DNA of 38,951 nt. Source: Nitrososphaeria archaeon. Its GTDB lineage: Archaea > Thermoproteota > Nitrososphaeria > Geothermarchaeales > JDFR-13. Shown piece by piece: positions 92 through 28,845 of this stretch; position 1 is the first letter of the stretch, and each line of letters begins with the position of its first letter. A program made the translations under genes and the position numbers. The notes under the pieces are model-generated. The model saw only the letters and a program-made list of their open reading frames with translations, was not told the origin of the DNA and searched no databases. Where the stretch lies: contig JALTTZ010000005.1 of NCBI GenBank assembly GCA_027047855.1, positions 1 to 38,951 on the forward strand. The letters are read 5' to 3'.

Positions 92-1420
92 ATGTCTGAG
101 GAGGCAGGGCAAGTTAGTAGGAGGGAATTCCTGAAACTAGCAGCAACAGCAGGTGTATCATTCGTAGTCGGTGCAGGAGTGGGATACTACGCAGGAATGA
201 TGGGTAGGGCACCAGCCCCAACCAAACCATCAAAGACAGAAGTAGTAATAGGTGTAATTGCCCCAATGGCGACTAAACAAGGAATGGTACAGAGAAATGC
301 AGCTGAACTGGCCGTAAGAGAGATCAATCAAGCTGGCGGAATACTCGATATGACGGTCAGGTTGGTAGTGGGCGACACCAAACTTAATCCAGATGTGGCC
401 GTATCAGAATTTAGGAGGCTAGTCACGGTAGAAAAAGCAGACTTTATGACAGGAGGTTTCTCCAGCGGAATAATGAACGCTATGATGGAGCCTATGGCAG
501 AGCTTAAAGTACCTTTCCTAGCGGATGCATCCTCACCTGGACACCCAGCCAAGGTACACGAGGAATATGACAAGTATAAATACTGGTTTAGGATAACACA
601 GAACAATGGTGCAACCTTCGCATGGGACTTGGCAGACATGTTTGACATGCTGGAAGAAAAGGGATATGATGTTAGCAAGATATATATAATAAGGGATGAG
701 CACATCTGGACCGATGCTGTCATGAGTTACCTACAGCCAGAACTGGATAAGAGAGGTATAACAATTGCTAAGGATGCAAAGGTGGGTAGGGGATACTCTG
801 AATACGAGCCTCTTTTGGTAGAGGCTCATGACATGGGTGTACAGGTGGTAGTGCCCATCCTAGCTATCGCCGGCACTGGAGACGTATTAGTCAAGCAGTG
901 GGCGAACCTTAAGCTCCCTATCCTACTCGCAGGACATGACTTAGCTGCACTAGACCTTGGATTCTACGAAGCAACAGGAGGAGCAGCTGAGGGATACATA
1001 TTCCTAGCAGATGGTGGAGTCGTTAATACAGCCCCACCCACGACGATGTGTGAGAAATTCATAAAGAACTATGAAGAGGCATACGGGCATCCACCAGAAG
1101 CCCATCAAGGATTTGGAGCATACGACGCGGTATATCTATTTAAGAAGGTTGTTGAGATGGCTCATGATGATGGGGTCGAGAACCCATTCGACCCCGATGT
1201 TGTAGTACAATACCTTGAGAAATTCAACCCTGATAATCCGATTGATCTAACCCGAACTATAGCATTCTACCCACCAGGCGATGAGAACAAGTTTGATCAT
1301 GACCTAGTATGGGGAGACAACTACGTTAGGAACTGGATATCACAGTGGCAAGGAGGAAAACAATATGTAATTAGAGGTAAGATAAAGAACGCAGAAATGA
1401 TTGAACCTCCATGGTTCTAA
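92..1420 (+). CDS. Branched-chain amino acid/aromatic acid-type ABC transporter substrate-binding protein (LivJ family) with Tat-type signal
   Basis: N-terminal SRREFLKLAATAG twin-Arg signal plus TM; periplasmic-binding fold type I text (VVIGVIAPMATKQGMVQRNAAELAVREINQAGGI); next to LivH/LivM. Confidence 0.9.
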   Translation: MSEEAGQVSRREFLKLAATAGVSFVVGAGVGYYAGMMGRAPAPTKPSKTEVVIGVIAPMATKQGMVQRNAAELAVREINQAGGILDMTVRLVVGDTKLNPDVAVSEFRRLVTVEKADFMTGGFSSGIMNAMMEPMAELKVPFLADASSPGHPAKVHEEYDKYKYWFRITQNNGATFAWDLADMFDMLEEKGYDVSKIYIIRDEHIWTDAVMSYLQPELDKRGITIAKDAKVGRGYSEYEPLLVEAHDMGVQVVVPILAIAGTGDVLVKQWANLKLPILLAGHDLAALDLGFYEATGGAAEGYIFLADGGVVNTAPPTTMCEKFIKNYEEAYGHPPEAHQGFGAYDAVYLFKKVVEMAHDDGVENPFDPDVVVQYLEKFNPDNPIDLTRTIAFYPPGDENKFDHDLVWGDNYVRNWISQWQGGKQYVIRGKIKNAEMIEPPWF

Positions 1421-1507
1421 ACATCCACCATAATTTTTTATTTATACACACTCTTTATAAAGCGAATTCACTTAATCGATTTTAATGTATGGTGTTGGGG
1501 ATATTAA

Positions 1508-2374
1508 ATGGGTGACATAAACACTCTAATGACCATATTCTTGTATGGAGCGACGTTTGGCGGGATCCTCGCACTCATATCCTCTGGGTTCACACTCATC
1601 TTCGGGGTATCAAGAATACTGAACTTTTCCCATGGAGCGTTCTTCATGATGGGGGCATATATAGGAATATATCTAATCCAACAGCTAAATCTAGACCCAC
1701 TTATAGCCTCTCTTATTAGCATCCTATTAGTCGGAATATTTGCTGTCGCAACATACATAACCATAATACATCCAGTCATAAAAAATGAAGTTATGACCAT
1801 TATAGTCACTCTAGCCCTAGCCCTACTAGTCGAACAAGTAATCCTATTAACATTTGGAGAATTTGGGTTCTCATACCCAGAACTGATCACAGGCACAATA
1901 AGTGTAGGAGGAGTGGCAATATCACTACTTAGAATATTAATACTCGCAATATCACTAGCCACGATATTAGCGCTCTGGCTATTCATTGATAAAACAAGAA
2001 TGGGTAAGGAGATCAATGCAGCATCCCAGGACCCAGAAGGAGCAATATTAATAGGTCTAGACGTCAATAAGATATTCGCCGTCACCATATTTATATCGGC
2101 GATACTCGCCGCATTAAGCGGAATCCTATATTCCCAAATGTATACCGCTAATCCATTTCAAATACTCAACTCACTCATACTCGCCTTCTCAATAGTAATA
2201 CTTGGTGGGCTTGGAAGCGTTAAAGGAAGCATAATATCATCATTCATAATAGGCTTCATTTACATAGCAACCACAACTCTCCTCGGGGCCAGATGGTCCG
2301 AATTCATAGCTCTAGCAATTATCATCGTAATCCTAATTATAAGGCCAACTGGTCTATTCGGGGTGGAAGAGTGA
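1508..2374 (+). CDS. livH: Branched-chain amino acid ABC transporter permease (LivH family)
   Basis: LivH-like text: SGFTLIFGVSRILNFSHGAFFMMGAY, GGLGSVKGSIISSFIIGF, RPTGLFG C-terminus. Confidence 0.92.
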   Translation: MGDINTLMTIFLYGATFGGILALISSGFTLIFGVSRILNFSHGAFFMMGAYIGIYLIQQLNLDPLIASLISILLVGIFAVATYITIIHPVIKNEVMTIIVTLALALLVEQVILLTFGEFGFSYPELITGTISVGGVAISLLRILILAISLATILALWLFIDKTRMGKEINAASQDPEGAILIGLDVNKIFAVTIFISAILAALSGILYSQMYTANPFQILNSLILAFSIVILGGLGSVKGSIISSFIIGFIYIATTTLLGARWSEFIALAIIIVILIIRPTGLFGVEE

Positions 2375-3387
2375 AAAAGATAACGAGATATTGGAGAATC
2401 AAGACCAATGAATTATCGTATCTTATCGGATTCATGATGGTCATGGCGGTAATACCTATATTCCTTCCCGAGACCCTACTATACATACTAGGATTAACCT
2501 TCATATTCATAGTATTCTCAGTAAGTTGGGACTTTATGACAGGCTTAGTAGGCGAGGTAAACCTCGGCCACACAATATTTATAGGTGTAGGTGGATACGT
2601 TACAGCATTGCTAAATGTCCCTCAGCGCTTCGAAAAAACATTCCTAAGCCCCTTGGCTACACTACCCCAGCTACCCATCCCACTAACTATACTCGTTGGA
2701 GGCATTATTGCAGCCATAGTAGGAATCCTTATAGGCCTAATTACTCTAAGGCTAAAGGGATGGTACTTCGCATTAGTTACAGCGATACTCCCACTATTAT
2801 TCATCAAGGCAACCTACGTCTTCAAAGAACTGTTTGGAGGTGAAGAAGGATTCTCAGTCGGCTTGGGCAGAGCTGTTGCCCAAGACACGCTAGGAAAATA
2901 CATAGTGACTTTGGTCTTCATGGCTATATGTATCTTAGTGATGTACGGAATAAAGAATAGCAAGTTAGGCCTAACCCTAATAGCAATAAGGGAAGACAAT
3001 ACACTAGCTGAATCACTTGGAATAAACATATATCTATACAAAGTGTTCGCAATGGCTGTCAGCTCATTCTTCGCGGGACTATCAGGTGCATTACTCGTCC
3101 ACTACAGAGTCACAGTATCACCAGACTTATTTGACGTCCCTCTCATGCTCCTTATAATCTTAGCCGTAGTCATAGGCGGATTAGGCAGCATAATTGGACC
3201 GATAATCGGAGGATTCCTAATATACCTTTTGAAATACTGGGTTCTCAAGGTATACCTAGTACCATTTATTCCACCGACCATACCAATTAACGACGATATA
3301 GTGCTATATCTCTTGCTAATAGTAATAGCTATAACAATGCCACACGGCATTTATGAGAGGTTAAGGAAACTATACCTAACTATCTAG
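2371..3387 (+). CDS. livM: Branched-chain amino acid ABC transporter permease (LivM family)
   Basis: LivM-like text (SVSWDFMTGLVGEVNLGHTIFIGVGGY, GGLGSIIGPIIGG). The ORF track begins at 2293, but GTG at 2371 overlaps the livH stop (GTGA) and gives a better start. Confidence 0.9.
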   Translation: MKKITRYWRIKTNELSYLIGFMMVMAVIPIFLPETLLYILGLTFIFIVFSVSWDFMTGLVGEVNLGHTIFIGVGGYVTALLNVPQRFEKTFLSPLATLPQLPIPLTILVGGIIAAIVGILIGLITLRLKGWYFALVTAILPLLFIKATYVFKELFGGEEGFSVGLGRAVAQDTLGKYIVTLVFMAICILVMYGIKNSKLGLTLIAIREDNTLAESLGINIYLYKVFAMAVSSFFAGLSGALLVHYRVTVSPDLFDVPLMLLIILAVVIGGLGSIIGPIIGGFLIYLLKYWVLKVYLVPFIPPTIPINDDIVLYLLLIVIAITMPHGIYERLRKLYLTI

Positions 3388-3414: not shown

Positions 3415-4107
3415 CTAAATCTGTTCAAAATACTGTTTCTCAAGCCCCCTAAGCGAATCGGTAGTACCCTCACCAACGATGTCGCCCTTAACCAATACAT
3501 AAATCCTATCAGAGACCTCAAACGCTAACTTAATGTTCTGCTCCACCATTAGAATATTAAGCTTAGTCTCCTCCCTAATCCTCAATAATGCATCCCTAAT
3601 CCTATTAATAACAATAGGTGCTAAACCCATTGAAGGCTCATCCATCAAGAGTAGTTTAGGCTCCGCCATTAAAGCTCTACCAATAGCCACCATCTGCTGC
3701 TCCCCACCACTCAAATTCTTACACATATTACGCCTTCGTCTCTTAATCTCAGGAAACAAACTATAGACAAACTCAAGACGATCCTTATACTCATTACCCC
3801 TAGATCCTAGAATCAAGTTATCCTCGACACTCATATTAGGGAATAAATGCCTCCCCTCAGGGCAAATGGCGATACCTAGTTTAATACGTTCATTAGTCTT
3901 CAATCGTGTTATATCCCTACCCATAAAAGTGATACTACCCTCGGTATGAACAAGCCCCAATATACTCTTTAACAAGGTCGTCTTACCAGCACCATTTGGC
4001 CCAAGAATGGCTACAGTCTCACCTTCATCAATAAAAATATCTATCCCCCGAAGGACAATCGCCTTACCATAATAGGCCTTAAGATCATCTATATCCAATA
4101 CTCTCAT
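3415..4107 (-). CDS. livF: ABC transporter ATPase (LivF family)
   Basis: Walker A GPNGAGKTTLLKS, LSGGEQQMVAIGRALM, LLLMDEPSMGLAP. Likely start MRVLDIDDLKAYYG at 4107 (ORF extends to 4155). Confidence 0.9.
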   Translation of the reverse strand: MRVLDIDDLKAYYGKAIVLRGIDIFIDEGETVAILGPNGAGKTTLLKSILGLVHTEGSITFMGRDITRLKTNERIKLGIAICPEGRHLFPNMSVEDNLILGSRGNEYKDRLEFVYSLFPEIKRRRRNMCKNLSGGEQQMVAIGRALMAEPKLLLMDEPSMGLAPIVINRIRDALLRIREETKLNILMVEQNIKLAFEVSDRIYVLVKGDIVGEGTTDSLRGLEKQYFEQI

Positions 4108-4161
4108 ACCCATACCCACACTCCGAAACGAATAATCATGAATACCTAAATACATTTACAC

Positions 4162-4845
4162 TCAACCAGTACCTAAATAAGCCTCGATAACCCTAGAATC
4201 ATTAACCACCTCATCAGGGGAACCTTCGAAAATAACTCGCCCACTACTAAGAACAGTTACCTTATCAGCCAATGTAAATAACTCCTTGAGCTTGTGCTCA
4301 ATAACCACCAGAGTCACACCACGCTCATGGAGACCCTTAATAACTTCAACGAGATCCATGGACTCCTTAGGACTTAATCCCGAAAAAGGCTCATCCAACA
4401 ATAGGAGCCTCGGATTCATAGCCAACGCCAAACCAATACTCAACCTCCTCAACTCCCCAAAAGGAAGATCCACCGCCTTGTAATTACGCTTATCCCATAA
4501 ACCCATTTCCTTAATTAACTCATCGGGATCATCCAACACAACTTGGAAATTCTGATAGACAGTTAAGTTCTTAAACACCCTTACTATCTGAAATGTCCTT
4601 ACCATACCCATACTAACAAGTTTATATGGCCTCAATCCAGTAACATCCATACCATTAAAATAGACTCTACCAGAAGTAGGCTTCAAAAAACCCGATATAA
4701 CATTGAAGAGTGTCGTCTTACCAGCTCCGTTAGGCCCAATTATCCCTCTACACTCTCCTTCCCCAACCTCAAGATTCACGTTGTTAAGAGCAACCAATTC
4801 CCCAAACTTCTTTGTTAAATTCTCAACCTTAAGCATCAAAAACAC
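4162..4845 (-). CDS. livG: ABC transporter ATPase (LivG family)
   Basis: GPNGAGKTTLFNVISGFLKPTSG, VRTFQIVRVFKNLTVYQN, LLLLDEPFSGLSP; pairs with livF. Confidence 0.9.
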   Translation of the reverse strand: MFLMLKVENLTKKFGELVALNNVNLEVGEGECRGIIGPNGAGKTTLFNVISGFLKPTSGRVYFNGMDVTGLRPYKLVSMGMVRTFQIVRVFKNLTVYQNFQVVLDDPDELIKEMGLWDKRNYKAVDLPFGELRRLSIGLALAMNPRLLLLDEPFSGLSPKESMDLVEVIKGLHERGVTLVVIEHKLKELFTLADKVTVLSSGRVIFEGSPDEVVNDSRVIEAYLGTG

Positions 4846-4868: not shown

Positions 4869-6203
4869 TTACTCATTCAACTTTCTTAAGTCTATTACTC
4901 TCTTGGCCTTCCCAGTGAACCTCTGTACACTGCCCACAGGTTTGAGTACTACATTGGGTGTAACACCAATAGCATTCCTAACCCTATCTATAATCTTCTT
5001 ACGTAGAGGTTCAAGCTTGCTCAGGTCACCTTTAACCATCTCGTATACCTCGGGATCGGGCTCCACCTCAATCGTCAATATATCCATGATCTTAGGTCGC
5101 TCAATCTTTGCGATAAAGTGTCCAGAGGCACCCTCAACACTAAGTATAGCCTCTTCCAACGCTTTAGGCCAGAACTTTACACCCCTTACTTTCACCATAT
5201 CATCAGCCCTACCCAGTATTCTACCCATACGCCCAATGCGCCTGCCACAGCTACATTCCTCAGTGGTCCAAGTAGTTAAGTCCCCAGTCCTATACCTAAG
5301 AAGCGGCATAGCCTCTTTAGTCAATGTCGTGATAACCAATTCACCGACCTCACCCTCCTCGACAGGTTCACCAGTAGCAGGGTCTATAATCTCCACCAAG
5401 AAATGGTCCTCATATATATGTAGCCCATCATGTTCACTACACTCAACCGAGACGCCAGGACCGATGATCTCAGATAAGCCATATATGTCAAAAGCCTCCA
5501 GACCAAGCTCCTCCTGAATCCGCTCCCTCAACTTCTCACTCCATGGTTCAGCACCAAATATCCCACTCTTCCACTTAAGCTCCTTAACGGGATCCCAACC
5601 GAGCTTTGTCCTAGCGTACTCAGCTAGATACATTGCATAAGTAGGAGTACAGCAAAGTATAGTAGTACCAAGCTCCTTGGCTAAGAAAAGCTGCCTCTCT
5701 GTACCCCCCGATGAAACAGGTACAACAGCCGCCCCTAACTTCAACGCACCATAATGGAAACCCAGTCCACCAGTAAACAGTCCATAACCATATGCATTAT
5801 GTATAATGTCACCCTTCTTGGCTCCAGCAGAAGCATAGATTCTAGCCATAACCTCGCTCCATATATCAATATCATGTTGTGAGTAGAACGTCGTGGTGGG
5901 CTTACCTGTAGTACCTGAGCTGGCATGAATCTCCAGAACGTTATCGATACTCGTAGCAAGCATTCCATATGGATATGCTTCCCTCATATCATCCTTAGTA
6001 GTAAATGGAATCTTGTGTAGATCATCGAGGGTCTTGATGTCATCGGGGTCCAACCCAGCCTCTTTAAATCTCTTACGATAAAACGGAGAATTCTCATAAC
6101 AATACCTAACCAGCTTCCTCAGACGCTCCTCCTGCAGCTTAGTGAGTTCATCCCTCCTCATACACTCGTACTCTGGTTGAAAAATCCAGCTCTCGACCTT
6201 CAT
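4869..6203 (-). CDS. Phenylacetate/aryl-CoA ligase (PaaK family AMP-forming)
   Basis: HASSGTTGKPTTTFYS, YGLSEIIGPGVSVEC, YRTGDLT, RADDMVKVRGVKFWP. ATG at 6203; the track start at 6206 is TTG. Confidence 0.9.
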   Translation of the reverse strand: MKVESWIFQPEYECMRRDELTKLQEERLRKLVRYCYENSPFYRKRFKEAGLDPDDIKTLDDLHKIPFTTKDDMREAYPYGMLATSIDNVLEIHASSGTTGKPTTTFYSQHDIDIWSEVMARIYASAGAKKGDIIHNAYGYGLFTGGLGFHYGALKLGAAVVPVSSGGTERQLFLAKELGTTILCCTPTYAMYLAEYARTKLGWDPVKELKWKSGIFGAEPWSEKLRERIQEELGLEAFDIYGLSEIIGPGVSVECSEHDGLHIYEDHFLVEIIDPATGEPVEEGEVGELVITTLTKEAMPLLRYRTGDLTTWTTEECSCGRRIGRMGRILGRADDMVKVRGVKFWPKALEEAILSVEGASGHFIAKIERPKIMDILTIEVEPDPEVYEMVKGDLSKLEPLRKKIIDRVRNAIGVTPNVVLKPVGSVQRFTGKAKRVIDLRKLNE

Positions 6204-6231
6204 CAAATCACCGTAGAACTTTGATACTAAT

Positions 6232-6349: not shown

Positions 6350-7516
6350 TCAATCGAACATGATCGATTCAACGAATGTCTCTACCATAGTCCTTAAATG
6401 CTCATAACTTGAGGTCGTCTCCTCATACTCTAGATGGAGGTATGGGAAGTGGAGTTCATCCAGTGCCTTCTTATAGATAACATAATCATACAAGCTTGGC
6501 TCACAGAACTTAGGAGACAAAAAGAGAACTCCCTCAGCCTTCTTCTCCTTGATCTCCCGCTTAATATACTCCTGCTTATCAATTGAGGGGTGAAACCTCA
6601 CTGTAAGAGGCGTTTGATTAGTAACATATGCACGAGCCAATTCAAGCACAGGGTCCCCGTCAAGATTTATCTGCCCTATCCAGTATTGACCTACTAGAGA
6701 CTCATCTTCTATAATATATGATCCAGCATCCTCAATAGTCTTCATATACATTAATGGAGGCTGTTCACAGAAGTTACCCTTTACAAGAATCCTAAGCCTA
6801 TCCGCCGGCCTCACCTTCCTCTTCTTAACCTCATCAATATATTTTTTAATAAGTCGATTGAACATATTAACAGGCATTATCGAACTGGCTTTAGTGACCA
6901 CATAGAACTCAGTGAAGGGGACCAACCAAGGCTTATCTCTCCTCAAACTCATCAACTTACCAATTAACGCTCGTTTTTCATTATGTAGTTTAATGCTCCT
7001 TCTTAACTTCTCCTCATCGAATTTCTCTCCAGTTCGTTCCTCAATTACCCTTATCAGTCTCTTATATTCATCTACCAGATACTTGATGGCCAATTCAGTA
7101 TCATTATGTATAGGGAAGTGCAGGTATATTATCTCTTGATCCTTCAAATTCCGCTTCATTATACCCGAGAGGTTACGGGCCACATCACATATATTGGAAA
7201 AAGCAAGAATATCAAAAGCCTTCAATCTATTCTCAGCACCCAATTGAAATACACTCTTACATATTGTACAAACGAATGACTGAGTATGCGCAATTGCTAT
7301 GTCCAAATTAATACGGCCCTCTGCTCCGTACAAGGCGACTGGCAACATATTAAATGCATCCGCTATCTCAACAGGGAAGTATACCGGGAAGTATCCCAAG
7401 GCGAATCCTGCGTTGATATCTTTCCATTCGCTAACTAGCCTAAAGTCGGTAAAGGAATCCTCATACCACTGCTTAAAAATCTCAAAAGTAGATGTGGGAG
7501 AAGTAACCCTACTCAT
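6350..7516 (-). CDS. Benzoyl-CoA reductase/2-hydroxyacyl-CoA dehydratase-family subunit (smaller, BcrC/BzdN-like)
   Basis: HgdB-family text: ICKSVFQLGAENRLKAFD, KFCEPSLYDYVIYKKALDELHFPYLHLEYE. ATGA overlap with the upstream ATPase gene. Confidence 0.8.
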   Translation of the reverse strand: MSRVTSPTSTFEIFKQWYEDSFTDFRLVSEWKDINAGFALGYFPVYFPVEIADAFNMLPVALYGAEGRINLDIAIAHTQSFVCTICKSVFQLGAENRLKAFDILAFSNICDVARNLSGIMKRNLKDQEIIYLHFPIHNDTELAIKYLVDEYKRLIRVIEERTGEKFDEEKLRRSIKLHNEKRALIGKLMSLRRDKPWLVPFTEFYVVTKASSIMPVNMFNRLIKKYIDEVKKRKVRPADRLRILVKGNFCEQPPLMYMKTIEDAGSYIIEDESLVGQYWIGQINLDGDPVLELARAYVTNQTPLTVRFHPSIDKQEYIKREIKEKKAEGVLFLSPKFCEPSLYDYVIYKKALDELHFPYLHLEYEETTSSYEHLRTMVETFVESIMFD

Positions 7517-8328
7517 CAGCTCCTCACCAGCCCCTTCTTCAACATCCTAATATAACCGAGGCGAGCTGCACCAATTGCACTCGCATAATAAAGATCCTTA
7601 GAGGCATTAACCTTCATACTTAACTTACTCTCTAATGCTTTAACTATAGCGGGGTTTAAAACTAGCCCACCAGTTAAAGTCAATTCGGGCTCTAGACCAA
7701 CTCGCTTAAGCGTTGTTATTACCCTACCCACTATGCTCAAGTGAGCCCCCATTAAGATATCCTCCATCGGAACATCCTGTGTAATCAAATTAATAACCTC
7801 CGACTCAGCCAAGACACTACACACAGTAGATATCTCAACGGGATTGGCAGACTTAACAGCCACTTTACCGATCTCTTCAATCTTAAACCCAGTATAGTAA
7901 GCGATTTTCTCCAGAAAGCCGCCACCGCCAGCCGCACACTTCTCGGTAGAAGCAAACTTAATTACCCTACCTCTCTCATCAATCTTACTGACCCTAGTGT
8001 TTCCTGCACCGATATCCAAAACACACCTTGTTTTTGGGAAGAGTAGGTGTGCACCCCTAGCTGAGGAAGTAATGTCAGTAACATTTATATCCCTAAAGTC
8101 GACCCTATATCTTCCGAAACCCGTGGCAACTATATAATCTACATCATTTTCATTTAGACCCGTAGCAACAAGAGCCTCTTTAAAAATCTCGTGGGCCGCC
8201 TTGTTGAAGTCATAACCAGTCTTCCTAAAACCAGTATAAATGAGCTTATTCCCATCCTCCATAACGGCAATCTTGGTATTTCTAGTCCCCACATCTATAC
8301 CAACCGTATAAACCACTCCGATCACCAT
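7516..8328 (-). CDS. BadF/BadG/BcrA/BcrD-family ATPase subunit (BcrD-like)
   Basis: Actin-like/ASKHA fold TVGIDVGTRNTKIAVME; Fe-S Cys contexts KCAAGGGGFLE and CSVLAESEVINL; BcrD-like DIGAGNTRVSKI replaces GGQD. Confidence 0.85.
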   Translation of the reverse strand: MVIGVVYTVGIDVGTRNTKIAVMEDGNKLIYTGFRKTGYDFNKAAHEIFKEALVATGLNENDVDYIVATGFGRYRVDFRDINVTDITSSARGAHLLFPKTRCVLDIGAGNTRVSKIDERGRVIKFASTEKCAAGGGGFLEKIAYYTGFKIEEIGKVAVKSANPVEISTVCSVLAESEVINLITQDVPMEDILMGAHLSIVGRVITTLKRVGLEPELTLTGGLVLNPAIVKALESKLSMKVNASKDLYYASAIGAARLGYIRMLKKGLVRS

Positions 8329-8331
8329 CCC

Positions 8332-9135
8332 CTAGACCACCTTCTGCCTAATCATAACCTTCTCATTAGCAAAGAGAGCTGCCCCAATGGCACCACAATA
8401 CATTGTTAGAGGACTCCGGTTAATCTTCATCTTAAGTAGCTCCTCCAATGCTTTCGCCATACCATCATTTAGGGAAACCCCACCAGTAAAAGTAATTTCA
8501 GGGACTATGCCCACTCGCCTCAACAATCCAATAGATCTGTTCGCTATCGAGAGATGGACACCATATAATATATCCTCTATACTATGACCCCATGCAAGTT
8601 GCTCGAGCACCTCACTCTCAGCAAAGACAGCACAAGTACTACTAATCTTAGTTGGATTCTTCGATGTTAATGAGATTGGCCCAACTTGGCTCAACTCGAG
8701 ACCTAATGCCTTTGCAGCACCCTCAATGAACCTACCCGTACCAGCAGCACACTTATCATTCATAACGAAGTCAATAACTTCCCCTTTCTCATTTATCCTT
8801 ATTGCCTTGGTATCCTGACCGCCCATATCCAAGACTGTACGGGTATTTGGAAAGAGGAAATGAGCTCCCTTAGCATGACAGCTAATCTCAGTCACTTGAG
8901 TGTCACCAAAAGTGATTTTGAACCGGCCATAACCAGTACCTACGACAAATACAACATCCTTCTTAGATACACCAGTCTTACTTAAAACCATCTCGAAGAC
9001 CTTATCGGCAGCCTCATTAATCCTAACACCAGTCATGGTTATGGCAGTCCCAATCAGATTATTCTCATTATCCATCAAAGCCGCCTTCGTATAAGTTGAC
9101 CCAGCATCAATCCCAGCTACATAATATTTGGCCAT
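8332..9135 (-). CDS. BadF/BadG/BcrA/BcrD-family ATPase subunit (BcrA-like)
   Basis: VAGIDAGSTYTKAALMD, LDMGGQDTKAI, KCAAGTGRFIE, CAVFAESEVLEQLAWG. Start trimmed from 9213 to MAKYYVAG at 9135. Confidence 0.87.
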   Translation of the reverse strand: MAKYYVAGIDAGSTYTKAALMDNENNLIGTAITMTGVRINEAADKVFEMVLSKTGVSKKDVVFVVGTGYGRFKITFGDTQVTEISCHAKGAHFLFPNTRTVLDMGGQDTKAIRINEKGEVIDFVMNDKCAAGTGRFIEGAAKALGLELSQVGPISLTSKNPTKISSTCAVFAESEVLEQLAWGHSIEDILYGVHLSIANRSIGLLRRVGIVPEITFTGGVSLNDGMAKALEELLKMKINRSPLTMYCGAIGAALFANEKVMIRQKVV

Positions 9136-9136
9136 A

Positions 9137-10426
9137 TCAAACCTCCACCCCCTTCCTAATAGACAACTCCTCAAAAAATGCATCAATCCGATTTCGTAGT
9201 TGTGCCTCGGCATAGTATCTCGGATCTACATGATCCGAGTCGATCAGTAGGGCAGGAATATCCTTCTCCTTAACGAAATATTCCCTTAAGTCACCATGCC
9301 CCATCGAGAAGCTCCTGCAACTCTTAATAGAATGAATAACAACACCATCCGCCTTATATTCCCTAACATACTGCTCCAATAACTTTAACCTATAAATCAT
9401 ATTCCAGTTACAATATGCATGAATCATATACTCTGCTAGAGACTCGATAGGTTTCTCAGGATTTAGTTTAAAAGCCCCCACATCCACCAAGCCAGCGACT
9501 TTAGGATAAGTAGAAGCTACCGCCCTCGCATTCCACCTCTTGAACAATCCCCAGAACCTCCTAAAGAAAGGATAATTAGGTACACCTTCAAACACGATCC
9601 TGAAATCTTCACGTTCAGTGGGCCCTACACCCGCCTCATACCTCCTTCGTAGCTCATCAACAAGGAACTTATAGAACTCCACAGCTTCAGGAGTCCCTCT
9701 AAGTAAAGTAATTACGGACATGTAGTAAATGGCCTCGAAATATGCATCTATAGGTGATGGAACCAACTTACCCATATGGAGAGCCTCTCTCCAATACCTC
9801 CAAGCCTCTCTAGAATAGTATACAATCTCCTTTAGACGCTCCTCATCAAACCTTTTGCCGCTAATCTCCTCCAACTTTGGAATAACAACATCCTCCAACT
9901 GACGCGTTACATAGATGATGTCATGATTATATACATGTCCATTGAAGTCTCTATAATACGGTACATCCACAGTAATAACGGGTGTTTTAAAGATGTATTT
10001 GAGTTGTTCCCACCAATGAATATATACTTGGCACCCCGAGTAGCCTAAGAACAATATATCAGGTTTAGGAATCTTGCCAATTACGGTATCACCACCCTTA
10101 AGTAATGCTCCAATACCCATCTTAACATACCCACAGCAATCTGTTGAATATCCAAACTCCTCCGCGGCCCCGATCAACTCCGGAGCCCCACCCTTATATG
10201 AAATTTGGAGACTAGTAACTTCAGGATAAACCGGTACTATATCAAAAACCATTAACAACTCGATTGGATTAGCCATAACATAGGCATAAGCAACCTTAGC
10301 CCCATTCTTAATGGCCTCATACATATTGGCATAATATTCCTTGACAAGCCTAGCCTGGTACCTTCTAGCTTGATCAAACTCCTTGAAATCCAATTTTCCA
10401 CCAGCCGCTTGCGTGGAGGCTGTCAT
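9137..10426 (-). CDS. Benzoyl-CoA reductase/2-hydroxyacyl-CoA dehydratase-family subunit (larger, BcrB/BzdO-like)
   Basis: STDCCGYVKMGIGALLKGG, FLGYSGCQVYIHWWEQLK, SIKSCRSFSMGHGDLREYF, DSDHVDPRYYAEAQLRNRIDAFFEEL; first gene of a tight 4-gene operon. Confidence 0.85.
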   Translation of the reverse strand: MTASTQAAGGKLDFKEFDQARRYQARLVKEYYANMYEAIKNGAKVAYAYVMANPIELLMVFDIVPVYPEVTSLQISYKGGAPELIGAAEEFGYSTDCCGYVKMGIGALLKGGDTVIGKIPKPDILFLGYSGCQVYIHWWEQLKYIFKTPVITVDVPYYRDFNGHVYNHDIIYVTRQLEDVVIPKLEEISGKRFDEERLKEIVYYSREAWRYWREALHMGKLVPSPIDAYFEAIYYMSVITLLRGTPEAVEFYKFLVDELRRRYEAGVGPTEREDFRIVFEGVPNYPFFRRFWGLFKRWNARAVASTYPKVAGLVDVGAFKLNPEKPIESLAEYMIHAYCNWNMIYRLKLLEQYVREYKADGVVIHSIKSCRSFSMGHGDLREYFVKEKDIPALLIDSDHVDPRYYAEAQLRNRIDAFFEELSIRKGVEV

Positions 10427-10539: not shown

Positions 10540-11598
10540 ATGATGATTGGGAATAATTTATATGGCATGGGTCGTATAATTCCCGAGAAACCAGGTATAA
10601 GAAATTTGCAATCAATAAAGAAAGGAAGCTATATATTGACTGTCCCCAAGTGGTGGGTCGAGAAACACGGTTTGGAAAAAGGCTCCAAATTACTCCTAAA
10701 TGAAGATGGGTACTCCCTCCGGATATACCCTCTAGAGAACATCAAGAAAGAAAGGAGTGTCGAGCTCGATTTCGATAAAATTGGTGACATGAAGATTTTA
10801 AGATACATGATTTTGACATATTATATGCAGGGAGTTAACAGAGTATCTATTAAGCTGGGAAAGAATGTCGATTATAAGGCAAAGCAACTAATGAGGGATA
10901 TGCGCCTAGATATGCCTGGCAGTGAAATAGTAAGGGACGACTCAGAGTATCTGATCTACCAGATACCAAGCAACGTATACCCCGAATCCCTCGATGAGAT
11001 GATGATACAACTTCATGATCTGGCTGTTACGGCTCATAAAGAATCAATAGAATCAATACTAAATGGCGACTTGAGCTTAGCCATGGATGTAGTCAATAGG
11101 GAAAGTGAAATGCTAAGAATATATCGTAAGCTAATAAGAAACATTACCCTATGCAGCATAAACCCGGCCATAGCGGAAGAAAAGGGAATAAAGAGCACAA
11201 GGGAATTATTATCATATGTATTGGCTTCAAGAGATCTAAATAGGATAGTCTATCACAGCATATACATATCACGCCATTATCTAAGTCTCGGAGACAACCA
11301 CATAGATGTTAAACTAAAGAAAATGATCAAGAACGCCTCCGACAAATCTATAGAGATGCAGAAATTAGCGGTAGAGTCGTTTATAAATAAGGATCTTGAG
11401 AGAGTATTCAAGGTAACAACTATAATGCCTAAAATCAGGGAGATAGAGGACGAATTAGATAGATTGGTAATAAAGACTGTAAGTGATGTAGATAAGGCAT
11501 ATAAACTTATGATGATAGGCCGAGAAATAAGAAGAATAGCTGGATTCAGCGTGGCAATAGCAGATGCAGCTGCCAACAGAATTCTATATATAGAGTAA
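10540..11598 (+). CDS. AbrB-like DNA-binding domain plus PhoU domain protein (archaeal PhoU-type regulator)
   Basis: N-terminal SYILTVPKWWVEKHGLEKGSKLLL (SpoVT/AbrB swapped-hairpin text) followed by PhoU-like helical repeats (HDLAVTAHKESIESILNGDLSLAMDVVNRESEMLRIYRKL). Confidence 0.75.
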   Translation: MMIGNNLYGMGRIIPEKPGIRNLQSIKKGSYILTVPKWWVEKHGLEKGSKLLLNEDGYSLRIYPLENIKKERSVELDFDKIGDMKILRYMILTYYMQGVNRVSIKLGKNVDYKAKQLMRDMRLDMPGSEIVRDDSEYLIYQIPSNVYPESLDEMMIQLHDLAVTAHKESIESILNGDLSLAMDVVNRESEMLRIYRKLIRNITLCSINPAIAEEKGIKSTRELLSYVLASRDLNRIVYHSIYISRHYLSLGDNHIDVKLKKMIKNASDKSIEMQKLAVESFINKDLERVFKVTTIMPKIREIEDELDRLVIKTVSDVDKAYKLMMIGREIRRIAGFSVAIADAAANRILYIE

Positions 11599-11608
11599 GA
11601 ATATGCTA

Positions 11609-11896
11609 TCAACCCCCAGCAACGGGAGGAATAAAATATATCCTGTCGCCCTCTCTCAATGTATAGTCGAGATCTCTAACCTGTTTATTATTCACCATAA
11701 TAACCACATCTAGATCAAGATTTCCACCCGCATCGGCATAATTCTCTCTGAACTCCGGATACTTACTAATCATCAGATCCACAAGATCCATAAGTTTACT
11801 ACCCTCAGCCAAATCAATCTCCATATAGTCTTTAAAGATAGGGAAAGCTTTTACGAATATCTTTATACCTCGTCCACCTCCACTACTTCTTAACAT
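11609..11896 (-). CDS. MoaD/ThiS-family ubiquitin-like sulfur carrier protein
   Basis: IKIFVKAFPIFKDYMEIDLAEGSKLMDLVDLMISKYPEF...VMVNNKQVRDLDYTLREGDRIYFIPPVAGG, with C-terminal di-glycine. Likely start MLRSSGGGRGIKIF at 11896. Confidence 0.8.
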   Translation of the reverse strand: MLRSSGGGRGIKIFVKAFPIFKDYMEIDLAEGSKLMDLVDLMISKYPEFRENYADAGGNLDLDVVIMVNNKQVRDLDYTLREGDRIYFIPPVAGG

Positions 11897-12089
11897 AGAC
11901 GACGAAACATTCATTACATATCTTAACTGCACATGATGCACATTCTTCTTTAAACTCGCTAGGGTCAGGTCTCTCAAACTTAACTTGATAACCTAACGAC
12001 TCGTATAGTTCTCTAATTTCCTCCATACGCTCGGGGGAGACCGTAAACATACGTTTCCAGTCAGTTTTTTCACCGACCCTAGTCTCCAT
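11883..12089 (-). CDS. Small (68 aa) Cys-rich protein, function unknown, translationally overlapped with the MoaD-like gene
   Basis: Ends EECASCAVKICNECFVVYVKK (CxxC...CxxC); 14-bp overlap with the downstream ORF; has its own TATA box at about 12103-12113. Confidence 0.7.
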   Translation of the reverse strand: METRVGEKTDWKRMFTVSPERMEEIRELYESLGYQVKFERPDPSEFKEECASCAVKICNECFVVYVKK

Positions 12090-12210: not shown

Positions 12211-13080
12211 ATGAGATCAAAGCTTCTCTCACTAGATGAAGTCTTCGAAGAATTCCTAACGGATGGAATGGATGTAGCCTTAGGCGGGGCATTAACATAT
12301 AATACACCTTCGGTGATAGCCAGGGAAATTATAAATAGAGACATAGGCGGACTAACTCTATATTCATTCATGGGCACATACCCAGTAGATTTATTAGCAG
12401 GCGCAGGTAAGTTAAGCAAAGTAATGGCTCCATTCATTACATTCGCTGAGATGGGGTTAGCCCCTTCATTTCGAAGGAAAGTAGAAGAGGGCTCATTAGA
12501 AGTGGTTGAAATAGATGAAGTCTTCTGGGGCTTCGGATTGAAAGCGGGTGCAGCATCATTACCATTCATCCCGCTAGCACATGGCTATGATAATGATCTA
12601 CCGAGGGTAAATCCACTATACAAAAAGGTTACCAGTCCATACGATGGAAAAACATATATCACAATCCCACCCATAAAGCCGAGCCTGTCAATAATTCATG
12701 TTCAGTATGCAGATGAATATGGAAATGGGATACATTTAGGGAATGTCGCTACCGATATGATGCTTGCAAAGGCATCCCATAAAGTCATCTTGACATGTGA
12801 CAAACTCATAAGTCATGAGGAAATCCGGAAGAGGAATAAAGAAGTTAGCATACCAGGTTTTCTTGTAGAGGGAGTTATAGAAATAGATTTTGCATGCCAC
12901 CCTCTAGGAAGTGATGGACTATACGTGAGAGATGAAGAACACTTAAGAATGTATGCGAAGATGGCCAGGAGTGAAGATGGATTTAACGAATACTTAAAGA
13001 ACTATGTCCTCGGAAAGACGCATCGAGAGTATCTTGATAAAATTGGTCGAGAGAAGTTAGATAACCTCAGAATCGGGTGA
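12211..13080 (+). CDS. CoA-transferase/hydrolase family I alpha subunit (GctA/IpdA-like)
   Basis: DGMDVALGGALTYNTPSVIAREII, FAEMGLAPSFRR, HVQYADEYGNGIHLGNVATDMMLAKASHKVILTCDKLI, HPLGSDGLYVRDEEHLRMYA. Confidence 0.85.
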   Translation: MRSKLLSLDEVFEEFLTDGMDVALGGALTYNTPSVIAREIINRDIGGLTLYSFMGTYPVDLLAGAGKLSKVMAPFITFAEMGLAPSFRRKVEEGSLEVVEIDEVFWGFGLKAGAASLPFIPLAHGYDNDLPRVNPLYKKVTSPYDGKTYITIPPIKPSLSIIHVQYADEYGNGIHLGNVATDMMLAKASHKVILTCDKLISHEEIRKRNKEVSIPGFLVEGVIEIDFACHPLGSDGLYVRDEEHLRMYAKMARSEDGFNEYLKNYVLGKTHREYLDKIGREKLDNLRIG

Positions 13081-13085
13081 TTAGT

Positions 13086-13832
13086 ATGGAAAGAGAGTAT
13101 TCAACATCGGAATTAATGGCATGTGTATTTAGTAGGGAGATAAAGGATGGTTGGCTTACAATAGTTGGAAATGCTTCATGGGTGCCTTTAGCGTCCCTTA
13201 TGTTGGCTAAAGAACTATATGCACCTAACATAACTATACTGAGCCTAGGTTATGCAGTCAATCCAGTAGGAAAAATACCATGGGACATGGGCGACTATAT
13301 GATTTATAAAGATATATGCGATGCCTTCATAACATTTGAAGACGTATTCGACTTGGAGGAGAGTGGGAAGATTGACCTCTTCTTCGCCGGGGGCATGCAG
13401 ATAGACCCTTATGGAGGGCTCAATCTTGTCTGTATAGGGGACTGGAAAAAACCAAAGGTTAGGGGCCCAGGAACCATTGGATTGGGATATCTACCTAGGG
13501 CGAAAAACGTATATTTGTGGACCCACTCACACAACAGACGTGTATTCGTTGAGAAACTCGATTTCTACTCATACAGAGGCCATAAAGGACTAAAGCCTTT
13601 CAACGGCCCTCAACTCGTAGTGACCAATCTATGCGTTATGGATTTCAATGAAGAGGGGCGTATGAGACTAAAGAGTGTACATCCAGGAGTCACTGTAGAA
13701 CAAATAATCGAGAATACGGGCTTTGAAATAGATATACCCCCTGACGTTCCAGAGACCCAGCCACCAACTCCTGGAGAGTTAAGGATACTGAGAGCCAACG
13801 ATAAATTAGGGATACTCAGGAAACTAGGGTGA
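13086..13832 (+). CDS. CoA-transferase/hydrolase family I beta subunit (GctB/IpdB-like), apparently lacking the CoA-transferase Glu
   Basis: FAGGMQIDPYGGLNLVCIGDW, RGPGTIGLGYLPRAKNVYLW, GPQLVVTNLCVMDF, HPGVTVEQIIENTGFEIDIP. GTG at 13077 or ATG at 13086. Confidence 0.85.
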   Translation: MEREYSTSELMACVFSREIKDGWLTIVGNASWVPLASLMLAKELYAPNITILSLGYAVNPVGKIPWDMGDYMIYKDICDAFITFEDVFDLEESGKIDLFFAGGMQIDPYGGLNLVCIGDWKKPKVRGPGTIGLGYLPRAKNVYLWTHSHNRRVFVEKLDFYSYRGHKGLKPFNGPQLVVTNLCVMDFNEEGRMRLKSVHPGVTVEQIIENTGFEIDIPPDVPETQPPTPGELRILRANDKLGILRKLG

Positions 13833-13841: not shown

Positions 13842-14624
13842 ATGCCGGGCAAAGTATTGTATGAAGTCAAAGATCAAGTTGCGTATATTACGTTAAGTAA
13901 TCCGGGTAAATATAATGCATTGGACATAGAGATGAGGAGACAATTAATCGAGATGCTTGATAAAGCCGAGAAAGATAACGATGTGAGAGTCATAGTTATC
14001 AGAGGAGAAGGGGAAAACTTCTCTGCGGGCGCCGACCTTAACTACTTCCTCAACATATCGATTGAGGAACTCGACCAATTCATCAAACAATATGGAACAA
14101 CAACCATAGGCCTCAAAATCAGAGATATTCCAAAACCAGTAATAGCACTAGTTAAAGGATATTGTATAGGGGGAGGCTTCGAATTAGTACAATACTGCGA
14201 TATAGTAATAGCCTCAGAAAAAGCCGTATTTGGTCAGCCCGAACTAAAAGTAGGGCTCATACCGGGGGGCGGCGGCACACAAAACCTACCCAGATTAATC
14301 GGTGACAAGAAAGCTAGGGAGATGATATATACTGGAAGCTTCGTCTCCGCCGAGGAAATGGCGAGAGCCGGGTTGGTCAACCACGTCGTCAAGGAAGAGG
14401 AACTATATGAAAAGTTGAATCAGATAGTGAAAAAGATTCTTTCTAAAAGCCCCATACACATCGCAATTGCGAAACAAGCAATAAACTATACCCTTGAGGC
14501 ACCCATCTCAACAGGACTTAGGGTGGAGACCGAACTTTTCAAACAAATTTTCGAGACAGAGGACACCCGAGAAGGCATAAAGGCGTTCCTTGAAAAAAGA
14601 AAACCTAAATGGAAAGGTAAATAG
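13842..14624 (+). CDS. Enoyl-CoA hydratase/isomerase (crotonase) family protein
   Basis: NPGKYNALDIEMRRQL, GEGENFSAGADLNYF, VKGYCIGGGFELVQYCDIVIASEKAVFGQPELKVGLIPGGGGTQNLPRLIG. Confidence 0.93.
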   Translation: MPGKVLYEVKDQVAYITLSNPGKYNALDIEMRRQLIEMLDKAEKDNDVRVIVIRGEGENFSAGADLNYFLNISIEELDQFIKQYGTTTIGLKIRDIPKPVIALVKGYCIGGGFELVQYCDIVIASEKAVFGQPELKVGLIPGGGGTQNLPRLIGDKKAREMIYTGSFVSAEEMARAGLVNHVVKEEELYEKLNQIVKKILSKSPIHIAIAKQAINYTLEAPISTGLRVETELFKQIFETEDTREGIKAFLEKRKPKWKGK

Positions 14625-14626: not shown

Positions 14627-15547
14627 ATGAACTATGAAAAACTAAAAAGCCGTATCCAAAATCAAGTATTAATCTATATTTTTCTCGCATATAGTTTAGG
14701 ATTTTTAGTAGACCTGATTTTTTACATATCAGGGCTCAGTTTTAAGGGTACTACCCCCCAAGAATACGTAACCATTACTTTGGCATGGGGATTCCTCCGA
14801 ATGTATACACCATTAACAGCCACATATCTGTCGCTGAGAAAAGAAGAAATAAAGTTTATAGGGTGGTTGAAATCTAGGACGCAAATAAACCTAAGGAACA
14901 TAACGGCATTCATTCTAAGTCCGTCTCTAGTACTATTATCTCTAGGGATCTACCTAATTATATACAGCTTCTTCGGAGTTATTCCATCAGAACTACCACT
15001 CCCAATAACCAGTGAACTCAAAGATCTTCCTCAGAGTGTTATTATTATGATTATTCTTGTAAATGGTTATATAGCGAGCATTACGATAAACGCATTTTAC
15101 GCCTTTGGAGAGGAGGTGGGCTGGAGAGGATTCCTCCAAGAAAAATTGGCAGAGAGATTCGACAACTTAGTGGCTCTGATACTAACGGGAATCATATGGG
15201 GTGGATGGCATTTTCCAGCCATGTTTATTTTGAGATATAATAATTTTGATATAAGTAGAATGGGGACCGTACAAATGGTATACAGCTTATTAGTGTATAC
15301 ACTATTTACAACAGTCGTTAGTATATTGATAGGATATATTTACTGGACCAATAGAAACATATTAATTGCATCGGGAATACATGGAGCGTTAAATGCATAC
15401 TGGGGGCTAACTAAAATCATCGCCCTAGAAGACCAAGTAGTATATACCGATACATCATCATTAATTGCATTACTAATAGTAGCTTGCATTACATATATCA
15501 TATACAAATGGGGAATAAAAAGAGATAGGGAGGGATCATTTATTTAA
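14627..15547 (+). CDS. CPBP-family intramembrane glutamic endopeptidase-like membrane protein
   Basis: GEEVGWRGFLQEKLAERF, GGWHFPAMF, ASGIHGALNAYWG motifs; multi-TM. Confidence 0.85.
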   Translation: MNYEKLKSRIQNQVLIYIFLAYSLGFLVDLIFYISGLSFKGTTPQEYVTITLAWGFLRMYTPLTATYLSLRKEEIKFIGWLKSRTQINLRNITAFILSPSLVLLSLGIYLIIYSFFGVIPSELPLPITSELKDLPQSVIIMIILVNGYIASITINAFYAFGEEVGWRGFLQEKLAERFDNLVALILTGIIWGGWHFPAMFILRYNNFDISRMGTVQMVYSLLVYTLFTTVVSILIGYIYWTNRNILIASGIHGALNAYWGLTKIIALEDQVVYTDTSSLIALLIVACITYIIYKWGIKRDREGSFI

Positions 15548-17314: not shown

Positions 17315-17315
17315 G

Positions 17316-17978
17316 CTACTCACCTCTAGATAACCAATAGAAGAAGCTATAAAGTATCAAGGCTGTAAATGCTACAGCTATAAACCAATATACAACCCAT
17401 GCGTCAAAACTTTCAGGCCATCTATCAATATTTGCCTCGAAGGACTGAGAAAATGAGTAGCTATTCTCGGGGCTGGGTGGCCACCCATTTGTATTAATCT
17501 CACTTAAGTACATCAACCAAGCAGTCAAAGCATCCTTCTCGTCATTAGAGAACTGCATAAAAGGCATATAGGTAGGCTTTCCTCCGAACTCTAAAACTTT
17601 TTCCCTAGTCTCAGGATACTTGTTATAATATTCCTCTAGGGACATTCCACTAGGCAAATATCTTCTAACAGCCCCCTCGGTAGGGAAATTAGCTGGATTA
17701 TCTAGGAAAGCCCTAACCCACGCTGGACCATGCTCCTCAAATACTTTAGTGAGATCCGGTGCAAAATATGCTCCATTTCCCACTATAGTATGACAACCCA
17801 TACAGTCATAATCCTGGGCTACCTTCCAACCATCGACAGCAGTTTTTCCTGCATAAACTATGGTAAGGGGATCGGGATTCCTAGGGGGAACGAAGGAAAT
17901 AACCGTCAAAATGATAATAAGGATAATCGAAGCTATAACCATATATTTCCCAATCTTCATCAACGGAATATCAGTCAT
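17316..17978 (-). CDS. norC: NorC-like membrane cytochrome c subunit
   Basis: N-terminal TM; DYDCMGCHTIVGNGAYFAPDLTKVFEEHG, YMPFMQFSNDEKDALTAWLMYLSEINTNGWPP; additional C-terminal TM WVVYWFIAVAFTALILYSFFYWL. Confidence 0.87.
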   Translation of the reverse strand: MTDIPLMKIGKYMVIASIILIIILTVISFVPPRNPDPLTIVYAGKTAVDGWKVAQDYDCMGCHTIVGNGAYFAPDLTKVFEEHGPAWVRAFLDNPANFPTEGAVRRYLPSGMSLEEYYNKYPETREKVLEFGGKPTYMPFMQFSNDEKDALTAWLMYLSEINTNGWPPSPENSYSFSQSFEANIDRWPESFDAWVVYWFIAVAFTALILYSFFYWLSRGE

Positions 17979-17979
17979 A

Positions 17980-18495
17980 TCACTTCCCCCTCCTAAGAAC
18001 AAAAACGTAAGCTAGCAAAGCTATAACTAAACCAGCGAGAGCCGCGGACGCAAACAGCAACTCATAAATAGGGGATGCTGGAGCCCCAACCTCCTCCCCC
18101 ACACCAACTTGCTCCGAAGCATATTGCAAAAGTGAAGCCAATGCAGAAGCCTCAGTATTAGTCAATGGAGAGGAAGCCCAAATCCCCTTCATCGTCGGCG
18201 TATCAGGATTCAATAAGTAACTCTCGAGCTTTACCTTGTCACTACCAAACGCAGTATACTCCCCTTTAACAAACACATTACTTAAATCGGGCCCTACACT
18301 TCCCCCCGAAACTTGAAGAGACCTTATAGAGTGGCAGGAGATGCAGGGTGGACCCCCATTCTCAAAGGATTGATCGCCCACGAAGTACGCTAAACCTGTC
18401 TCTACATCCTGGGGATACTGTGAGTAAACGGCTACAGCAGACACACTTAAAGCTAAACATATGAGCATAAACACAAAGAACATGTTCCTAGTCAT
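17980..18495 (-). CDS. Monoheme c-type cytochrome with signal peptide and C-terminal TM anchor
   Basis: Signal MTRNMFFVFMLICLALSVSAVAVYSQ, heme motif CISCH, C-terminal ELLFASAALAGLVIALLAYVFVLRRGK. Confidence 0.85.
   Translation of the reverse strand: MTRNMFFVFMLICLALSVSAVAVYSQYPQDVETGLAYFVGDQSFENGGPPCISCHSIRSLQVSGGSVGPDLSNVFVKGEYTAFGSDKVKLESYLLNPDTPTMKGIWASSPLTNTEASALASLLQYASEQVGVGEEVGAPASPIYELLFASAALAGLVIALLAYVFVLRRGK
18478..18487. promoter_or_regulatory. Perfect palindrome GAACATGTTC (copy 1, inside 5' end of cytochrome CDS)
   Basis: Exact 10-bp palindrome; identical to 18537-18546. Confidence 0.4.
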
Positions 18496-25418: not shown

Positions 25419-25526
25419 ACTAAAATTATTATAAATGCAAAGCAGTATATATAACGTGCTATATTTAGAACTATAAGTAAGTATAATTTAGTATTTACAT
25501 AAATAAAAATTGGAGAGCTTATGAAC

Positions 25527-28831: not shown

Positions 28832-28845
28832 GTTTTCGCCCCTTA

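What the first reader, a model, noticed from the sequence alone, without database searches (positions are those of the whole stretch)
6350..10426. Complete four-gene class I (ATP-dependent) aryl-CoA reductase-like operon in a thermophilic archaeal background
Seen: four tightly packed minus-strand genes, two HgdB-family subunits (429 and 388 aa) flanking two BadF-family ATPases (about 267 and 270 aa). The ATPases are asymmetric: one has canonical GGQDTK/KCAAGTGRF, the other GAGNTR/KCAAGGGGF, like BcrA versus BcrD. Established: 2-hydroxyacyl-CoA dehydratases normally use one activator ATPase, while benzoyl-CoA reductases use two non-identical ones (BcrABCD, BzdNOPQ). Inference: this is an ATP-driven dearomatising reductase, more Bzd-like given two short ATPases. 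Among archaea, class I BCR is best known from Ferroglobus-type Archaeoglobales; a crenarchaeal version would extend its range. No ferredoxin or 2-oxoacid:ferredoxin oxidoreductase is in the window.
Basis: partly seen in the sequence, partly recalled or inferred. Interest (0 to 1): 0.78.

Follow-up and report, generated by a model that had tools for sequence, protein, structure and literature searches.

The report
Archaeal ATP-driven aromatic-ring reductase operon
An uncultured geothermal archaeon (Geothermarchaeota) carries a complete set of genes for the ATP-powered enzyme that breaks the aromaticity of benzoyl-CoA without oxygen, embedded in what looks like a phenylacetate/phenylalanine degradation cluster; the kind of enzyme is known, the host lineage and parts of the pathway around it are new.

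Summary
Four packed minus-strand genes, ordered B-A-D-C (10426 down to 6350), encode two HgdB-family subunits and two unlike BadF-family ATPases. Among solved structures all four are nearest to 3-methylbenzoyl-CoA reductase (MBR). In trees the ATPases fall into separate A and D clades, each with its MBR counterpart and away from dehydratase activators; recent paralogy is rejected (p 3e-7). The host is a Geothermarchaeota relative, not a crenarchaeon in the strict sense. The operon sits in a cluster conserved in three congeneric MAGs. Together with contig C36, which by synteny adjoins the window, the cluster holds a tungsten aldehyde oxidoreductase, PaaK ligase, PadBCD-like enzyme, 2-oxoacid:ferredoxin oxidoreductase and Oah-like hydrolase: most likely phenylalanine/phenylacetate degradation via benzoyl-CoA. 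Close Had and Dch were not found in the three incomplete MAGs. A neighbouring CoA-transferase-fold pair carries the IpdAB hydrolase glutamate instead of the transferase one, a possible extra ring-opening enzyme. Class I BCRs are already reported from other archaea, so this is a new member of a known kind. No activity was tested.

The parts
9137..10426 (-). bcrB-like catalytic subunit (429 aa): active-site [4Fe-4S] ligands C98, C132, C370; acid E69; Y100 and Y307
   Evidence: TIGR02260 326 bits; MbdO E 1e-72; residues; model pLDDT 87.7; best fold match 9g87
8332..9135 (-). bcrA-like canonical ATPase/electron activator (267 aa), GGQDTK, bridging-cluster cysteines in KCAAGTGRF and STCAVFAESE
   Evidence: (MbdQ E 3.5e-93)
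7516..8328 (-). bcrD-like second ATPase (270 aa) with altered motifs GAGNTR and KCAAGGGGF; bridging cysteines kept
   Evidence: TIGR02261 171 bits; D clade with MbdP
6350..7516 (-). bcrC-like electron-transfer subunit (388 aa) with three cluster cysteines C83, C110, C338, not the six of BzdN
   Evidence: TIGR02263 251 bits; MbdN E 6.5e-63
4869..6206 (-). PaaK-type (phenylacetate) CoA ligase, 445 aa
   Evidence: PaaK models 512-517 bits, benzoate-CoA ligase model 35 bits; next to bcrC in three congeners
3415..4845 (-). LivF/LivG-type ABC ATPases of an importer
   Evidence: LivG; synteny
92..3387 (+). Substrate-binding protein and LivH/LivM-type permeases; left of it the contig ends, and in congener G002 a PadB-like gene follows
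   Evidence: (Peripla_BP_6)
10540..11598 (+). AbrB/PhoU-domain protein, divergent from bcrB; homologues lie near aromatic clusters of other families; candidate regulator
11609..11977 (-). ThiS/MoaD-like sulfur carrier (possible W/Mo-pterin supply)
   Evidence: a similar gene lies beside the aldehyde oxidoreductase in Caldarchaeales (L149, L165)
12211..13080 (+). IpdA/GctA-like subunit; carries the glutamate of IpdA (EIDEVF) that is Ala in PDB 6coj
13077..13832 (+). IpdB/GctB-like subunit; lacks the glutaconate CoA-transferase glutamate
13842..14624 (+). Enoyl-CoA hydratase (crotonase family); best match in this genome to the dienoyl-CoA hydratase of relatives, but only 36%
15536..18002 (-). 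cNOR-like NO reductase: NorB-like (HYWVEG, GHHYFWIG) and NorC-like cytochrome c (CMGCH); possible respiratory partner
   Evidence: NorB-like gene also in G002

Best explanation
The four genes encode an ATP-dependent class I benzoyl-CoA-type reductase of the BCR/MBR kind. By analogy with solved relatives, reduced ferredoxin gives electrons to a [4Fe-4S] cluster bridging the A and D ATPases; ATP hydrolysis (about one per electron) lowers their potential and passes them via the cluster of subunit C to the three-cysteine [4Fe-4S]-water cluster of subunit B, which dearomatises an aryl-CoA to a cyclohexadienoyl-CoA. In this archaeon the substrate most likely comes from phenylacetate or phenylalanine: a tungsten aldehyde oxidoreductase makes phenylacetate, PaaK makes phenylacetyl-CoA, a PadBCD-like Mo enzyme oxidises it, a metallo-beta-lactamase-fold hydrolase may release phenylglyoxylate, and a 2-oxoacid:ferredoxin oxidoreductase decarboxylates it to benzoyl-CoA while reducing the ferredoxin that the reductase needs. 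Ring opening follows by an Oah-like crotonase and/or the IpdAB-like pair. Shown: gene content, kinship, residues, synteny. Inferred: all activities, the substrate and the electron flow.
For: All four subunits match MBR best among solved structures. BCR-type HMM scores of the large subunits exceed those of the structurally characterised MBR and of dehydratase controls (B 326, MbdO 221, HadB 131; C 251, MbdN 229, HadC 178). Two ATPase clades with MbdQ and MbdP (99/94), apart from activators (99/97). Residues retained. Fold match. Relatives with roughly 50-75% identical subunits have the operon beside a 2-oxoacid:ferredoxin oxidoreductase and Had-, Dch- and Oah-like genes, some also beside a 4-hydroxybenzoyl-CoA reductase alpha subunit (TIGR03194, 860 bits); 29 of 73 more distant loci have at least two of Had/Oah/Dch near by. 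In the window's genome contig C36 holds Oah-like, AOR, KOR and PadBCD-like genes and adjoins the window by synteny. The bacterial phenylalanine route has the same steps (PMC9765128).
Against: No expression or activity data; the MAG is 75% complete. None of the four passes its curated NCBIfam BCR cut-off. Canonical Thauera/Rhodopseudomonas BcrCBAD and Ferroglobus sequences could not be fetched, only BCR HMMs. AU tests on subunit B alone do not exclude grouping with HadB or BzdO (p 0.10, 0.14). Had and a close Dch were not found in the three congeners. PadB has no specific HMM; its naming rests on subunit architecture and neighbours. The catalytic residues kept in B are also kept in the dehydratase HadB, so they do not discriminate.
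Confidence: 0.82

Rival explanations
1. It is a 2-hydroxyacyl-CoA dehydratase (for example phenyllactyl-CoA dehydratase of reductive phenylalanine fermentation) with a duplicated activator.
For: Same fold and the same three cysteines and glutamate in the catalytic subunit; AU tests on B and C alone do not exclude a HadB/HadC grouping (p 0.10 and 0.085).
Against: The two ATPases belong to old, separate A and D lineages shared with MBR; recent duplication rejected, p 2.6e-07. BCR HMM scores are well above those of HadB/HadC. Neighbouring genes in relatives are those of the benzoyl-CoA pathway.
Confidence: 0.07
2. It is a class I reductase whose physiological substrate is not benzoyl-CoA but a substituted aryl-CoA (methyl-, hydroxybenzoyl-CoA or similar).
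For: The closest solved relative is 3-methylbenzoyl-CoA reductase; relatives carry 4-hydroxybenzoyl-CoA reductase-like genes; pocket residues differ from BzdO (W46, H131 and Q274 replaced).
Against: The PaaK, PadBCD-like and 2-oxoacid oxidoreductase genes of the same cluster lead to plain benzoyl-CoA; pocket residues also differ between characterised types, so they do not fix the substrate.
Confidence: 0.2
3. The operon serves redox balancing, biosynthesis or detoxification rather than catabolism.
For: Activity and direction are untested; close Had and Dch are absent from three congeneric MAGs.
Against: A ligase, an importer, an Oah-like hydrolase and an oxidative PadBCD-like enzyme are clustered with it; characterised class I reductases are catabolic (PMC11971306).
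Confidence: 0.05

Closest known systems
3-methylbenzoyl-CoA reductase MbdONPQ of Thauera chlorobenzoica (PDB 9g87, 9gai)
   Same: Four subunits; two short, unlike ATPases in the same A and D clades; three-Cys pattern in both large subunits; best structural match
   Different: About 33% identity in the catalytic subunit; archaeal operon order B-A-D-C; D-subunit motif GAGNTR instead of GGQTMK
BCR-type class I benzoyl-CoA reductase, BcrCBAD / BadDEFG (NCBIfam TIGR02259-TIGR02263)
   Same: Best-scoring curated equivalog models for B and C, and the models that tell A from D
   Different: All below the curated cut-offs; the A subunit lacks roughly 165 N-terminal residues of the TIGR02259 model; gene order differs from the bacterial relatives seen here
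BzdNOPQ (BZD-type)
   Same: Same family; two short ATPases
   Different: Double-cubane ligands C36, C263 and C293 of BzdN are P, L and L here; low HMM and structure scores
HadBC-HadI / HgdABC (2-hydroxyacyl-CoA dehydratases)
   Same: Fold, cluster ligands, activator-type ATPase
   Different: One activator only, outside the two-ATPase clade (99/97)
Class I BCR gene clusters of Hermodarchaeota and other archaea (PMC8163825)
   Same: Archaeal class I BCR with Dch/Had/Oah genes already reported
   Different: Reported as nearest to Chloroflexi; the present proteins form a separate, well-supported archaeal clade (Geothermarchaeota, Caldarchaeales, Nitrososphaerales, some Thermoplasmata) with B-A-D-C order
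IpdAB, COCHEA-CoA ring-opening hydrolase of steroid degraders (PMC5380842)
   Same: The window pair 12211-13832 carries the IpdA glutamate and lacks the transferase glutamate
   Different: Distant (E about 1e-27 for the A subunit); no steroid context seen; activity untested

Membership tests
[quoted passage not shown]
[quoted passage not shown]
   A with MbdQ and D with MbdP 99/94; separation from activators 99/97; recent paralogy rejected, p 2.6e-07
[quoted passage not shown]
   C 94/97 and B 98/99 with MBR; alternatives not all excluded by AU test (p 0.045-0.14)
[quoted passage not shown]
   C98, C132, C370, E69 (shared with HadB, so not discriminating)
BCR-type equivalogs as defined by NCBIfam | Curated NCBIfam cut-offs for BcrA-D | tested here: not met
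   B 326 of 487, C 251 of 421, A 207 of 578, D 171 of 313 bits. The structurally characterised MBR subunits fail them too, so the cut-offs define a narrower clade than the enzyme class
[quoted passage not shown]
   Needs biochemistry
BZD-type subgroup | Six Cys for the [8Fe-9S] double cubane in the N subunit | tested here: not met
   only three of the six are present
2-hydroxyacyl-CoA dehydratase | Single activator ATPase; HadBC/HgdAB kinship | tested here: not met
Anaerobic benzoyl-CoA pathway (Thauera type) | Dch, Had and Oah present | tested here: inconclusive
   Oah-like present on C36 (131 bits, cut-off 464); no close Had or Dch in three MAGs of 72-75% completeness
IpdAB-type ring hydrolase (neighbouring pair) | Catalytic Glu in the A subunit, no transferase Glu in the B subunit | tested here: met
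   the Glu is also in the GctA-like protein beside the bcr genes of a Heimdallarchaeota contig (L047). Hydrolase activity not testable

The most novel reading that the evidence does not exclude
In this archaeal genus the benzoyl-CoA pathway runs without the usual Had and Dch and uses an IpdAB-type (CoA-transferase-fold) hydrolase, otherwise known from steroid ring cleavage, to open the oxocyclohexene-carboxyl-CoA ring or to act beside the crotonase-type Oah-like enzyme, coupled to an ATP-dependent reductase in a geothermal, NO-reducing archaeon.
Probability: 0.22. Interest if true: 0.65.

Novelty: new member of a known kind. Interest (0 to 1): 0.5.

Why it matters
If the enzyme works, ATP-driven Birch-type ring reduction extends to Geothermarchaeota and Caldarchaeales, offers a possibly thermostable enzyme for a reaction that is hard to study, and links aromatic amino-acid degradation to presumed NO reduction in uncultured geothermal archaea. 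The conserved cluster also supplies a direct test case for an IpdAB-type hydrolase in anaerobic aromatic degradation.

Tried and rejected
BZD-type assignment: rejected by HMM scores, cysteines and structures. Dehydratase with duplicated activator: rejected by the ATPase tree. Class II BCR: the tungsten enzyme on C36 was checked for BamB kinship and is much nearer to aldehyde oxidoreductase (1aor 305 bits, BamB 188 bits). CoA-transferase reading of the 12211-13832 pair: homologues elsewhere keep the transferase Glu, this pair does not. Caldarchaeales also have a GctAB pair beside bcr, but it keeps the transferase Glu, so it is not the same enzyme. Plasmid searches for named BCR or PadB references gave only dehydratase-like loci and one Sporomusa Mo enzyme. 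NCBIfam gave no name for the NorB/NorC-like genes; they are named from motifs. Paper searches joining benzoyl-CoA reductase with Thermoproteota, Crenarchaeota, Geothermarchaeota or Aigarchaeota turned up no report of this operon among titles and abstracts seen, but only open-licence papers were searched.
Full report
Observation. The four genes exist as described. On the minus strand they run B (9137-10426), A (8332-9135), D (7516-8328), C (6350-7516), with gaps of -1 to +3 bases. NCBIfam gives BCR-type models as best equivalog matches for the large subunits (B 326 bits, C 251 bits) and tells an A-like from a D-like ATPase; BZD-type models score 93-101 bits on the large subunits.

What the proteins are. 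Against all PDB chains the four subunits match 3-methylbenzoyl-CoA reductase best: B to MbdO 1e-72, C to MbdN 6.5e-63, A to MbdQ 3.5e-93, D to MbdQ 7e-61 and MbdP 1e-55. Controls calibrate the HMM scores: TIGR02260 gives 326 (window), 221 (MbdO) and 131 (HadB); TIGR02263 gives 251 (window), 229 (MbdN) and 178 (HadC). So the window's large subunits look at least as BCR-like as the structurally characterised MBR. An AlphaFold model of B (pLDDT 87.7, 27 sequences) matches 9g87/9gai first, then HadB, then BzdO.

Trees. Reference sequences were taken from the printed PDB alignments, relatives from genome scans. Quick trees and careful trees agree. The A subunits with MbdQ, and the D subunits with MbdP, form the two sides of a branch (99/94), and together are separated from dehydratase and DCCP activators (99/97). 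Forcing archaeal A and D together costs 60 log units (p-AU 2.6e-07). The large subunits group with MBR (B 98/99, C 94/97), but the AU tests for HadB, BzdO, HadC and BzdN groupings give p 0.10, 0.14, 0.085 and 0.045, so the ATPases carry the decisive signal.

Mechanism residues. PMC11971306 gives the BzdNO ligands. Subunit B of the window keeps the three Cys (C98, C132, C370), the acid Glu (E69) and both Tyr; H131 and W46 of BzdO are replaced, as in MBR. Subunit C keeps C83, C110 and C338 but not the other three double-cubane ligands (P44, L274, L304), the same three-Cys pattern as MbdN. The [8Fe-9S] cluster of BzdN is therefore not expected here. Both ATPases keep the two Cys of the bridging cluster.

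Organism and distribution. The window is contig C5 of a 1.37-Mb, 146-contig, 75% complete MAG. Its nearest named record is Candidatus Geothermarchaeota S009_6_esom (WAJV01000015, 95% in B), then Ca. Caldarchaeum subterraneum SZUA-1515 (68%), Thermoplasmata and Nitrososphaerales MAGs (62-65%), then bacteria of many phyla at 42-48%. In the class 7 of 400 sampled genomes, the window's included, have a close C subunit; in a phylum-wide sample 3 of 398 have a close B, two of them at 69-70%, one of which is the Caldarchaeum SZUA-1515 contig itself. Other genera of its own family lack it, so the operon is patchily distributed.

Neighbourhood. In three congeneric MAGs the order crotonase - GctB/GctA - MoaD - PhoU - bcrBADC - PaaK - Liv transporter is conserved, with the NorB-like gene seen beyond it in the window and in G002. 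In other archaeal families the operon lies beside a 2-oxoacid:ferredoxin oxidoreductase, PadBC-like genes, a metallo-beta-lactamase-fold protein, Had-, Dch- and Oah-like genes, and in some a 4-hydroxybenzoyl-CoA reductase. In the window's genome the corresponding genes are on contig C36: Oah-like crotonase, W-aldehyde oxidoreductase (AOR, not BamB), KOR beta/alpha/gamma, metallo-beta-lactamase fold, and PadC-, PadD- and PadB-like. C36 ends some 30 bases beyond the PadB start; in G002 PadB (90% identical) lies directly beside the substrate-binding protein whose homologue starts at window position 92. Hence C36 most likely adjoins the window on the left. There is no sequence overlap between the two contigs, so the join is inferred from synteny.

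Pathway reading. PMC9765128 describes the bacterial route: phenylalanine, phenylpyruvate, phenylacetaldehyde, phenylacetate (AOR), phenylacetyl-CoA (ligase), phenylglyoxylyl-CoA, phenylglyoxylate, benzoyl-CoA. The steps from phenylacetaldehyde on have a candidate in the cluster. The attraction is that the last step would reduce the ferredoxin that the reductase consumes. These assignments are inference: PadB has no specific model, and the oxidoreductase subunits match several 2-oxoacid families.

Gaps and oddities. Close Had and Dch homologues were found in seven related genomes each but not in the three congeners, whose best hits are 32-36%. Incompleteness is a possible cause. G002 has a BadH-like SDR beside the Oah-like gene (226 bits, cut-off 431). 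The GctAB-like pair lacks the CoA-transferase Glu and has the IpdA Glu. That this Glu matters in IpdA is inferred from its Glu-to-Ala change in PDB 6coj. IpdAB acts on a 6-oxocyclohexene-carboxyl-CoA ring in steroid degradation (PMC5380842). A GctA-like protein with the same Glu follows an Oah-like gene beside the bcr genes of a Heimdallarchaeota contig (L047). Homologues in four sampled genomes outside the genus keep the transferase Glu. A ring-hydrolase role is therefore worth a test, no more.

Novelty. Class I BCRs in archaea are already in the literature (Hermodarchaeota and others, PMC8163825). I found no open-licence paper describing one in Geothermarchaeota. The enzyme is a new member of a known kind; the lineage, the separate archaeal clade and the cluster are the new parts.

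Noticed in passing
window 15536-18495: cNOR-like NorB (HYWVEG, GHHYFWIG) with a NorC-like cytochrome c and a further CISCH cytochrome, suggesting NO reduction in this archaeon.
   Followed up: partly
window 12211-13832; L047 5202-6111: CoA-transferase-fold proteins with the IpdA-type Glu (and, in the window, no transferase Glu) next to bcr genes in two distant archaeal groups.
   Followed up: partly
window 10540-11598; L025 2354-3529; L036 127-1164: AbrB/PhoU-domain protein repeatedly near the aromatic cluster, candidate regulator.
   Followed up: partly
L147 (G000:C36) 1120-3030; L149 3327-5222; L165 4396-6294: W-aldehyde:ferredoxin oxidoreductase next to the Oah-like gene in Geothermarchaeota and Caldarchaeales, with a ThiS/MoaD-like gene beside it in Caldarchaeales.
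   Followed up: partly
L147 87-1025; L047 4217-5200: Oah-like crotonase with a C-terminal zinc-ribbon-like tail.
   Followed up: no
L147 7278-8219 and homologues: Metallo-beta-lactamase-fold protein conserved beside the oxidoreductase genes; a candidate phenylglyoxylyl-CoA hydrolase (guess).
   Followed up: no
window 25005-28912: CBS-domain protein and SufB/SufD/SufC-like Fe-S assembly genes on the same contig (read from the translations only).
   Followed up: no
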